Of a DNA stretch of 50,456 nucleotides, positions 1 through 5,962 are shown in pieces. The notes beneath the pieces are model-generated. The model searched no databases. It worked only from the letters and a program-made list of their open reading frames with translations, and was not told the DNA's origin. Position numbers and translations under genes: made by a program. Location of the stretch: positions 1 to 50,456 of the forward strand of contig CAKZKT010000121.1 of NCBI GenBank assembly GCA_937124585.1, given 5' to 3'. The DNA comes from an uncultured Anaerolineae bacterium (GTDB taxonomy: Bacteria > Chloroflexota > Anaerolineae > CG2-30-64-16). The stretch's first letter is position 1. Each line of letters opens with the position of its first letter.

Positions 1-78
1 GTGCCAGGCACTCTCCAAGATGCCTGGCACGTGAACACGGTCCATGTGCCAGGCACTCTCCAAGATGCCTGGCACGTG
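1..78. repeat. Two copies of the GTGCCAGGCA palindromic repeat
   Basis: Two nearly identical 30-bp units lie at 1-30 and 49-78. Each has GTGCCAGGCA and TGCCTGGCAC arms around a 10-nt centre, and the period is 48 bp. The same family recurs at 7007-7040, 15233-15250 (half copy), 21448-21483, 21547-21582, 42703-42732 and 48125-48158. The reading frame of the downstream gene runs open through both copies, but its Shine-Dalgarno lies after them. Confidence 0.9.
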
Positions 79-108
79 AGCACGGTTTTTTTCGGGTCAG
101 GAGCCACG

Positions 109-1248
109 ATGATCACTAACTTGCTTCCCGCCATCCTGTTCGCCGGGCCGCCGCATAGCGGCAAATCGGTCCTGGCCTATCTGCTCTCTCGTCGCCTGCG
201 CGAAGCCGACGTGCCGCACATCCTCCTGCGCGCCGCGCCCGACGGCGAGGGGGACTGGTCCTACGAGTGCCCCGAGGAAGCCCGCGTCCACCAACGCCAG
301 AAGGGCCTGTACACCGCGGACCTGATCGCCGACCTGCTGACGGCCATCCGCAACCGCAGCCTGCCTATGCTGGTGGACATCGGCGGTCGGCTGCGCGCGG
401 AGCAGTTCGAGCTGCTGGACGCCTGCACCCACGTCGTCCATCTCTGGCGGGAAGAGGCCGACCGCCAGGAGTGGACAACCTGGCTGGAGGAACGCAGCCT
501 CATCCCCATCGCCCGCCTGCGCTCGCAGCTCGCGCCGCCGGACGAGCTGGCGCCGGACGCCGGCCCGTTGCAGGGCACGATCACCGGCCTGGACCGCAAC
601 CGTCCGCAGCCCGGCCCCACCTTCGAGCACCTCTTCGAGCGCGTCCGCGGCATCTGCGCGTATCCGCCGGTCGCATTGGAAGCCGAGCACCTGCGCCGAG
701 CGCCGGCCGCGATCCCGCTGGTCACGACCGCAGAGCTGGCGCGCGGCCTGGGAATCATCTCGCCGAGCGGCGACATCCGGTGGCAGCCCGAGCATCTGCC
801 TCGACTCCAGGAGCTGGTGCCCGCGAGCCGGCCGCTGGCGGTGTACGGCCGCGGGCCGGTCTGGCTGTACGCGGCGCTGGCCGCGCACGTGGCCCCGGCG
901 TCGTTTCATCTGTTCGACGCCCGCTTCTACGGCTGGATGGAGCCGCCATCGGTGATCCTGGGTTCAGACAGGGCCAACTGCGAGTTCACGCTGACGGCCC
1001 TGTCGGAGCCCGACGGCCTCCGCCTGCGCTTCAACCGCAGCGACGAGCGCTATGTGCTCAGGCCGCTCCCCGTGCACGTGCCGCCCCTGCCGGCCGGCCG
1101 GCGCATCATCCTGGACGGCGCCATGCCCGCCTGGTTGTGGGCGGCCCTGGCGGCCGGCCTGCGCCACCGGCCGGCCCTGGCGGCCTATGAACCGCGCACC
1201 GGCCGGATCGTCACCTTCTGGCGGGATGGGCAGCTCGCCGCCGCTTAA
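109..1248 (+). CDS. csx3: P-loop domain fused to two Csx3-like (CRISPR ring-nuclease family) domains
   Basis: A 379-residue protein. Residues 13-20 (GPPHSGKS) form a Walker A motif in an N-terminal P-loop kinase/AAA-like domain of about 190 residues. The C-terminal half has two Csx3-type modules. The first carries VYGRGPVWLYAALAAH (245-260) followed by FDAR (269-272). The second carries DGAMPAWLWAALAAG (336-350) followed by AAYEPRTGRIV. Archaeal Csx3/Crn3 has the matching series 'GRGPIWLH...YDPRLG' and degrades cyclic oligoadenylate second messengers of type III CRISPR systems; Csx3 fusions to ATPase domains are known. The Asp of the YDPR motif is Glu in the second module. The ATG at 109 is chosen because AGGAG at 99-103 precedes it and the upstream codons lie in repeats. 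No cas gene or array is in the window, so the role is inferred from sequence alone. Confidence 0.75.
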   Translation: MITNLLPAILFAGPPHSGKSVLAYLLSRRLREADVPHILLRAAPDGEGDWSYECPEEARVHQRQKGLYTADLIADLLTAIRNRSLPMLVDIGGRLRAEQFELLDACTHVVHLWREEADRQEWTTWLEERSLIPIARLRSQLAPPDELAPDAGPLQGTITGLDRNRPQPGPTFEHLFERVRGICAYPPVALEAEHLRRAPAAIPLVTTAELARGLGIISPSGDIRWQPEHLPRLQELVPASRPLAVYGRGPVWLYAALAAHVAPASFHLFDARFYGWMEPPSVILGSDRANCEFTLTALSEPDGLRLRFNRSDERYVLRPLPVHVPPLPAGRRIILDGAMPAWLWAALAAGLRHRPALAAYEPRTGRIVTFWRDGQLAAA

Positions 1249-1534: not shown

Positions 1535-4750
<3,216 letters not shown>

Positions 4751-4864
4751 TTAATCATCGGCCAGCAGCCGAAATGAGCAGCAACCGGCCTGAGGAAAAA
4801 TCGGGGATCAAGGCCACAACTCAGCGCTCAGCATATTTTACTATACTCTACCCCAATTCCCGGG

Positions 4865-5962
4865 TTATGGCAAAATCACGGAGTGTCGGCCACGTATCTC
4901 CGCCGCCCGGTCGAAGATCTCCTCTCGGCTGATTCCTGCGGCCTCGTACATGGCAAAGATGTTCTCGTCGGGCGTCTCGGGCGGGACCGTGTGCGAGGCG
5001 GCCAGGATGTAGCCGCCCCCGTCGGCGGTCATCCCCTCGATCAGCCGGCCGGTGGCGCGACGGACCTCGGCGGCTGTGCCATGTGGGAGCAGTTCTTGGG
5101 TATCCACCCCGCCCATGAAGGTGATGTGGCGGCCGAATTCCCGCTTCAGGTCGAGCGGATCCATGCCCGGACAGTTGCTCTGCACGGGATTCAGCACGTC
5201 CATGCCGATCTCGATCAGGTCGGGGATGATCGGCCGCAGCGCGCCGCAGCAGTGATAGGCGACCGGCAGGCCGGCCGCTTTGCCCACGGCGAAGACGCGC
5301 GCCAGATGCGGCTTGATCTGCGTCCGCCAGGTCCTGGGATGCATCATCATGCCGGTCTGCGAGGCGATGTCGTCGCCCGTCCAGTACCAGTCGAGCGGGA
5401 AGCGGCGACACGCCGCTGCGCCGAGCGCGATGGCGAAGTCGGCGCAGCGACCGAACATCGTCCACGCCAGATCGGGATCGGCAGCCATGTCGGCCAGCGC
5501 GTCGGCCATCCCTCGCAGCCGCCAGTACATCTCGAAGACGCACGGTGACACATCGCAGCCGATGAAGCGGTCTCCGGCATGAGCAATCACCGGCTCCATC
5601 AGCGCCAGCAACGCTTCGGCCTGGTCATAGGGGAAACGATAGGCCAGCACTGCTTCGCGCGACGCGCCGGCCAACGGAAAGTGGACGATCTGGTTGAAGT
5701 AGTATTGTTTGACCCACCGGATGCCCCAGGCGTCGGTGTGCCCTTCGCCGTCGTGCTCGTGGACGATCCCCTCCATGGCGTAGTTGTTGTTCACCCACGT
5801 CTGCACGATATCGTTGCCCATCGCCTCGCCGACGCGAGAGACAGGAATCTCCAGCGATTCGGCCAGGTGTCGGGCGGTGGCCGGATGAAACCACATGAAG
5901 ATCGGGATCCGGTCTGCGGGCTGGCGGCGCAGCGCCGCGTAGACGCGCGTCCTGGCATCCAT
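4865..5962 (-). CDS. Uroporphyrinogen decarboxylase-fold (URO-D/MtaA-like) protein
   Basis: A 365-residue protein of the URO-D superfamily, which holds HemE and the corrinoid:CoM methyltransferases MtaA/CmuA. The segment YHCCGALRPI carries the His-X-Cys-Gly pair that binds zinc in the methyltransferase branch. The later Cys ligand is absent: the matching segment reads GGYILAASHTVPPETPDEN. It is therefore neither a typical HemE nor a complete MtaA. Neighbours are a beta-galactosidase downstream and a winged-helix protein upstream, so a role in sugar or methylated-compound catabolism is possible but unproven. The start at 5962 is preferred because CGGAG precedes it and the longer frame begins inside a palindromic repeat. 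Confidence 0.8.
   Translation of the reverse strand: MDARTRVYAALRRQPADRIPIFMWFHPATARHLAESLEIPVSRVGEAMGNDIVQTWVNNNYAMEGIVHEHDGEGHTDAWGIRWVKQYYFNQIVHFPLAGASREAVLAYRFPYDQAEALLALMEPVIAHAGDRFIGCDVSPCVFEMYWRLRGMADALADMAADPDLAWTMFGRCADFAIALGAAACRRFPLDWYWTGDDIASQTGMMMHPRTWRTQIKPHLARVFAVGKAAGLPVAYHCCGALRPIIPDLIEIGMDVLNPVQSNCPGMDPLDLKREFGRHITFMGGVDTQELLPHGTAAEVRRATGRLIEGMTADGGGYILAASHTVPPETPDENIFAMYEAAGISREEIFDRAAEIRGRHSVILP

What the first reader, a model, noticed from the sequence alone, without database searches (positions are those of the whole stretch)
109..1248. P-loop ATPase fused to two Csx3-type ring-nuclease domains without visible CRISPR genes
The C-terminal half has two copies of the Csx3 signature (G-x-GP/MP-x-WL and FDAR/YEPR), behind a Walker A domain. 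Csx3/Crn3 degrades the cyclic oligoadenylate signal of type III CRISPR immunity. A single-chain tandem Csx3 could mimic the natural dimer, and the ATPase part suggests an extra activity such as phosphorylation or dephosphorylation of the messenger. Within 50 kb on the right there is no cas gene or array, so it is either at the edge of a locus on the left or a stand-alone signal-degrading protein.
Basis: partly seen in the sequence, partly recalled or inferred. Interest (0 to 1): 0.75.

Follow-up and report, generated by a model that had tools for sequence, protein, structure and literature searches.

The report
CRISPR-linked NTPase with two Csx3 domains
A Chloroflexota protein that looks like a CRISPR signal-destroying enzyme has lost the metal-binding half of that enzyme's active site in both of its copies, and it is almost always encoded head-to-head with a signal-binding gene regulator, so it more likely senses the antiviral alarm signal than destroys it.

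Summary
The gene is real: window 109-1248 encodes a P-loop NTPase followed by two Csx3-like domains. It is a full-length member of an already catalogued family, PADLOC C3a67 "AAA-Csx3" (E 5.5e-82). It is not CRISPR-free. The window is a whole contig that starts 108 nt upstream of the gene, in a genome-wide repeat. The genome has two type III systems, III-A (contig C122) and III-D (C27), both with an intact GGDD motif in Cas10. In 39 of 39 Chloroflexota loci with upstream sequence, this gene lies head-to-head with a CARF-LuxR-HTH regulator gene. In this genome that regulator is the last gene of C122, so the III-A operon almost certainly lies just left of the window. The P-loop domain models as a SIMIBI (MinD/ParA/HypB-like) NTPase. 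The Crn3 histidine/metal face (H57, H60, H80) is missing from both Csx3 domains in the window and in nearly all of 59 relatives; the cA4-binding face (G45, R46, D69, R71) is kept in the first domain. None of 45 carrier genomes has a separate Csx3 to supply it. Best reading: a cyclic-oligoadenylate-binding NTPase switch paired with a cOA-responsive transcription factor, not a Crn3-type ring nuclease. Biochemistry is untested.

The parts
1..77 (.). Two tandem copies of an imperfect palindrome (GTGCCAGGCACTCTCCAAGATGCCTGGCAC), a genome-wide interspersed repeat at which the contig ends
   Evidence: 147 matches in the genome; contig C122 ends with the first 14 nt of it, GTGCCAGGCACTCT
99..103 (+). 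AGGAG ribosome-binding-like site
   Evidence: read from sequence
109..1248 (+). AAA-Csx3 (C3a67) protein, 379 aa: SIMIBI-like P-loop NTPase plus two Csx3-like domains
109..708 (+). P-loop NTPase domain, SIMIBI-like fold (residues 1-200; modelled core 3-186)
   Evidence: AF2 model pLDDT 89; VIA-align Z up to 13.6 with FlhG/MinD/ParF/Soj/HypB
145..168 (+). Walker A GPPHSGKS (residues 13-20)
   Evidence: G13, G18, K19 invariant in the family
235..258 (+). APDGEGDW, family-specific motif at the end of strand 2 (residues 43-50)
   Evidence: D45, G48, W50 invariant in both alignments
376..387 (+). DIGG, DxxG-type switch/Walker B (residues 90-93)
   Evidence: D90, G92, G93 invariant
772..1008 (+). 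Csx3-like domain 1: keeps the cA4-binding 'D69 face' (YGRGPVWL, FDAR), lacks H57/H60/H80
913..924 (+). FDAR: equivalents of AfCsx3 D69 and R71 in domain 1
   Evidence: D in 51 of 59 relatives, R in 50 of 59
1015..1245 (+). Csx3-like domain 2: lacks H57/H60/H80; D69 replaced by E here and mostly Q in relatives
1186..1197 (+). YEPR: degenerate equivalent of Y-D69-P-R71 in domain 2

Best explanation
The protein is an accessory of the genome's type III-A CRISPR system. Cas10 makes cyclic oligoadenylate (cOA) on detecting phage RNA. The Csx3-derived C-terminal half binds cOA, probably cA4, through the D69 face kept in domain 1, with domain 2 as a degenerate structural partner. Because the histidine/Mn face is missing from both domains, it does not cut the ring by the Crn3 mechanism. 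Ligand binding instead controls the N-terminal SIMIBI-type NTPase, which acts as a nucleotide-driven switch. Its most likely target is the head-to-head encoded CARF-LuxR-HTH transcription factor or the promoters between the two genes, so the pair would tune the transcriptional response to the alarm signal. Shown computationally: architecture, fold class, residue loss, type III linkage in the family, and gene pairing in the family. Strongly inferred: contig adjacency to the III-A operon. Inferred only: cOA binding, NTP hydrolysis, and action on the CARF regulator.
For: Full-length family match. Genomic association: 43 of 47 carrier genomes have Cas10 against 61 of 353 non-carriers, Fisher p 2e-24. 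Head-to-head CARF-HTH neighbour in 39 of 39 loci; the closest relative, L113, shows it on one contig. CARF plus LuxR HTH by Pfam, and CARF/Csa3 folds among the structure matches. H57 present in 2 of 59 domain-1 and 3 of 59 domain-2 sequences, H60 in 3 and 4, against 10 of 10 and 9 of 10 in stand-alone Csx3; D69 and R71 in 51 and 50 of 59 domain-1 sequences. H60A alone abolishes cA4 cleavage in AfCsx3 (PMC7371418). No separate Csx3 in 45 carrier genomes. SIMIBI fold. Cas10 GGDD motifs intact.
Against: No experiment shows cOA binding, NTP binding or loss of cleavage. D69 and R71, both needed for full Crn3 activity, are kept in domain 1, and other ring nuclease families (Crn1, Crn2) cut without metal, so a residual or different cleavage mechanism is possible. 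The only link between the NTPase and the regulator is gene neighbourhood. C122-C121 adjacency rests on synteny and a 14-nt overlap inside a repeat, not on reads.
Confidence: 0.52

Rival explanations
1. It is still a ring nuclease: the tandem Csx3 pseudo-dimer (or a dimer of it) cuts cA4 with D69/R71 of domain 1 and new residues, and the NTPase domain drives assembly or product release.
For: Csx3 homology of both domains; D69/R71 kept in domain 1; cA4-type effectors such as Csx1 CARF-HEPN in the same genome would need an off switch; no other Csx3 in the genome.
Against: H57, H60 and H80 are lost in both domains family-wide, and H60A alone abolishes AfCsx3 activity (PMC7371418). The NCBIfam equivalog TIGR02579 is missed (35.2 of 55.4 bits).
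Confidence: 0.25
2. It is a cOA-triggered or cOA-modifying enzyme: the SIMIBI domain phosphorylates, ligates or adenylylates a substrate or the messenger itself.
For: Foldseek's top matches include CTP synthetase and VIA-align rows include dethiobiotin synthetase, both SIMIBI enzymes; a strongly conserved PDGEGDW motif follows strand 2.
Against: No known substrate-binding motif of those enzymes was identified; many SIMIBI members are switches, not enzymes on small molecules; fold similarity shows no function.
Confidence: 0.15
3. It is a stand-alone signal-degrading protein unrelated to a resident CRISPR locus.
For: No cas gene within the window.
Against: Two type III systems in the genome; universal pairing with the CARF-HTH gene, found at the end of the csm contig here.
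Confidence: 0.03

Closest known systems
PADLOC C3a67 'AAA-Csx3' (PDLC01059), a type III CRISPR accessory family
   Same: Full-length profile match, same architecture, type III association; all 34 members tested match
   Different: Nothing at family level; the histidine-face loss, the SIMIBI fold and the CARF-LuxR partner were not found described in the papers I could read
Crn3/Csx3 ring nuclease (AfCsx3, AF_1864)
   Same: Csx3 fold and D69/R71 face in domain 1
   Different: Two domains in one chain, no H57/H60/H80 in either, N-terminal NTPase
Csx3-AAA of cyanobacteria (e.g. Slr7080-type; PDLC01045)
   Same: Same P-loop domain fused to a Csx3 domain
   Different: Opposite domain order and one Csx3 domain; nine loci also carry a separate Csx3
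Csa3-type CARF-HTH regulators
   Same: The partner gene is CARF plus HTH
   Different: The partner has a LuxR-type HTH, its CARF is closest to Crn1-type structures, and it is paired with an NTPase gene
FleN/FlhG-FleQ (MinD-like ATPase with a cyclic-nucleotide-responsive regulator)
   Same: Analogy only: SIMIBI ATPase paired with a nucleotide-responsive transcription factor
   Different: No homology beyond the SIMIBI fold; no interaction shown

Membership tests
AAA-Csx3 (PADLOC C3a67) | Full-length match to the family profile | tested here: met
   E 5.5e-82, residues 4-362 on profile 2-355 of 382
AAA-Csx3 (PADLOC C3a67) | Association with type III CRISPR | tested here: met
   43 of 47 carriers have Cas10; two type III loci in this genome
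Crn3/Csx3 ring nuclease | Csx3 fold or sequence similarity | tested here: met
   Pfam 43.7 bits over cut-off 21; Foldseek 3wzg TMt 0.69
Crn3/Csx3 ring nuclease | NCBIfam TIGR02579 equivalog cut-off | tested here: not met
   35.2 bits against 55.4
Crn3/Csx3 ring nuclease | H60 face: H57, H60, H80 | tested here: not met
   A57, A60, D80 in domain 1 and A57, R60, R80 in domain 2; absent in nearly all relatives
Crn3/Csx3 ring nuclease | D69 face: D69, R71, G45 | tested here: met
   Domain 1 has G45, D69, R71; domain 2 has E at 69
Crn3/Csx3 ring nuclease | Mn-dependent cA4 cleavage | not testable with these tools
   Needs an assay
SIMIBI-class P-loop NTPase | Fold similarity of the N-terminal domain | tested here: met
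   Z 11.5-13.6 over about 155-178 residues; the 50 rows shown are SIMIBI-type proteins
SIMIBI, MinD/ParA branch | Deviant Walker A with signature lysine | tested here: not met
   GPPHSGKS has P14 at that place; branch not assigned
AAA+ ATPase | AAA+ core with C-terminal lid | tested here: inconclusive
   Only weak Pfam AAA_18 (E 0.07); no AAA+ fold in the rows shown, which does not exclude it

The most novel reading that the evidence does not exclude
The Csx3 fold has been converted from ring nuclease to a cOA receptor in a widespread Chloroflexota family. A cOA-gated SIMIBI NTPase and a cOA-binding CARF-LuxR factor, encoded head-to-head, would form a two-receptor transcriptional control module of type III CRISPR immunity, in which one arm is an NTP-driven timer.
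Probability: 0.3. Interest if true: 0.75.

Novelty: new variant of a known kind. Interest (0 to 1): 0.52.

Why it matters
Databases label such proteins as Csx3/Crn3 ring nucleases, so surveys of who can switch off type III signalling would miscount them. If they sense rather than destroy the signal, they add a cOA receptor type outside CARF and SAVED, and the conserved regulator pairing points to a transcriptional layer of type III immunity in Chloroflexota that can be tested directly. The AAA part has been called a domain of unknown function (PMC12409355); a SIMIBI assignment gives it a concrete hypothesis.

Tried and rejected
A first reading that domains 1 and 2 keep complementary halves (D69 in one, H60 in the other) was rejected: aligned without gaps, the histidine of domain 2 sits at position 61, with R at 60 and A at 57. 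Trans-supply of the H60 face by a separate Csx3, as might happen in cyanobacteria, was rejected for Chloroflexota: all hits in 45 genomes lie inside the AAA-Csx3 genes. A viral origin or viral copies: none in viral contigs or phage records. The single-sequence scan of genome contigs found nothing but the alignment scan did. Intergenic regions were extracted and read by eye for an operator; none was obvious and no statistics were run. No AAA+ entry stands among the fold matches shown, which does not exclude it. Makarova 2020, Shah 2019 and Brown 2020 are not held, so prior remarks there cannot be excluded.

Full report
What is there. Window 109-1248 (+) encodes a 379-aa protein. It has a canonical Walker A (GPPHSGKS) and a DIGG motif in the N-terminal half and two Csx3-like domains in the C-terminal half. 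Pfam Cas_csx3 scores 43.7 bits against a cut-off of 21. The PADLOC model C3a67 'AAA-Csx3' covers residues 4-362 at 5.5e-82, and all 34 sequences aligned in A2 also match it. The protein therefore belongs to a catalogued type III accessory family.

Where it lies. The window is the whole of contig C121 of a 4.83-Mb, 164-contig assembly. Relatives named in the record titles are mostly Chloroflexota. The contig begins 108 nt upstream of the gene, inside a palindromic repeat with 147 matches in the genome. The genome has two Cas10 genes and one Cas1. Contig C122 holds Csm2-Csm3-Csm4-Csm5, Cas10, Csx1 (CARF-HEPN), a CARF-PDDEXK protein, Cas6, an RT next to Cas1, and short arrays. Contig C27 holds a III-D system with its own Csx1. 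Both Cas10 proteins keep GGDD, so cOA production is expected.

The left edge. In relatives taken from 400 genomes of the phylum, the neighbour is constant: in 39 of 39 loci with upstream sequence, a CARF gene is divergently adjacent. Among the named genome contigs the same pair recurs, with a few exceptions in orientation such as L129 and L139. The closest relative, L113 (51% identical over the protein), has the pair on one contig. In the window's genome this CARF gene is the last gene of C122, on the minus strand, its start 33 nt from the contig end, and that end (GTGCCAGGCACTCT) is the first 14 nt of C121. Locus L080 shows the intact order Csm5-Csm4-Csm3-Csm2-Cas10-CARF, then the divergent AAA-Csx3. 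I infer that the III-A operon lies immediately left of the window; only reads can prove it.

The partner. It is a PF09623 CARF domain plus a LuxR-type (GerE) HTH. The model of its L113 homologue (pLDDT 91) matches Crn1 ring nucleases, Cad1-CARF and the cA4-bound regulator Csa3. Close homologues of it (E below about 1e-36) were found only in genomes that have AAA-Csx3. AAA-Csx3 carriers have Cas10 in 43 of 47 cases, against 61 of 353 non-carriers (Fisher p 2e-24).

The NTPase. The AF2 model (pLDDT 89.1, pTM 0.86) puts residues 3-186 in the SIMIBI class: FlhG, MinD, ParF, Soj, HypB and dethiobiotin synthetase at Z 11.5-13.6, with CTP synthetase, FtsY and GPN GTPases leading Foldseek. The 'AAA' label therefore looks wrong at fold level. 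The signature lysine of the MinD/ParA branch is absent. Strongly conserved PDGEGDW and DxGG motifs suggest a live nucleotide site, but hydrolysis is untested.

The Csx3 domains. In AfCsx3 the active site forms between the 'D69 face' of one dimer and the 'H60 face' of another. H60A or D69A alone is dead, R71A and H80A are strongly reduced, and H57 and H60 are the likely Mn ligands (PMC7371418). I aligned 10 Csx3 domains not fused to this P-loop domain, 15 Csx3-AAA domains and 59 distinct pairs of domains from this family. Unfused: H57 10/10, H60 9/10, H80 10/10, D69 10/10, R71 10/10. Domain 1: G45 52/59, D69 51/59, R71 50/59, H57 2/59, H60 3/59. Domain 2: D69 2/59, R71 11/59, H57 3/59, H60 4/59, H80 4/59 (R in 30). 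The window has A57, A60, D69, R71, D80 in domain 1 and A57, R60, E69, R71, R80 in domain 2. No other Csx3 exists in 45 carrier genomes to supply an H60 face. The Crn3 mechanism is therefore unlikely, while cOA binding through domain 1 is conserved at the residue level.

A parallel. In cyanobacteria and others, all nine Csx3-AAA fusions that sit near a separate Csx3 lack at least one catalytic residue in their own Csx3 domain, whereas four of six without such a neighbour are fully intact (small sample, neighbours sought only within the loci fetched). Degeneration of the fused Csx3 domain thus seems a recurrent theme.

Mechanism. I consider a cOA-gated NTPase switch acting with the CARF-LuxR regulator most likely (about 0.5), a residual ring nuclease less likely (0.25), and an enzyme acting on a substrate or on cOA possible (0.15). 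FleN-FleQ is a useful analogy, not evidence. I found no paper in the held library describing this family's function, but three key papers are not held.

Noticed in passing
window 1-77; 147 matches genome-wide: Abundant interspersed palindromic repeat (GTGCCAGGCAC...GTGCCTGGCAC type), often in tandem arrays of about 45 nt, found at several contig ends; origin unknown.
   Followed up: partly
L006:7141-9156 (contig C122): A Schlafen-AlbA-like plus NACHT (STAND) protein encoded between csm2 and cas10 in the III-A operon.
   Followed up: no
L005:5060-6025 and 3948-5018: A reverse transcriptase gene adjacent to cas1, suggesting RNA-derived spacer acquisition by the III-A system.
   Followed up: no
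L106:9497-10654 (G124) and G230:C24: AAA-Csx3 split by a stop at the boundary of the NTPase and Csx3 parts; either a two-gene version or decay.
   Followed up: no
L157, L158, L160, L162, L163, L164, L166, L167, L072: Cyanobacterial loci carry a separate (mostly intact) Csx3 beside a degenerate Csx3-AAA fusion, a possible hetero-oligomer.
   Followed up: partly
L163, 733-aa ORF in Leptolyngbya sp. PCC 7375: A large protein with an almost intact Csx3 domain at its C-terminus (H60 replaced by R), near a Csx3-AAA gene.
   Followed up: no
L148, L152: Distant AAA-Csx3-like proteins in Saccharibacteria, about 25% identical.
   Followed up: no
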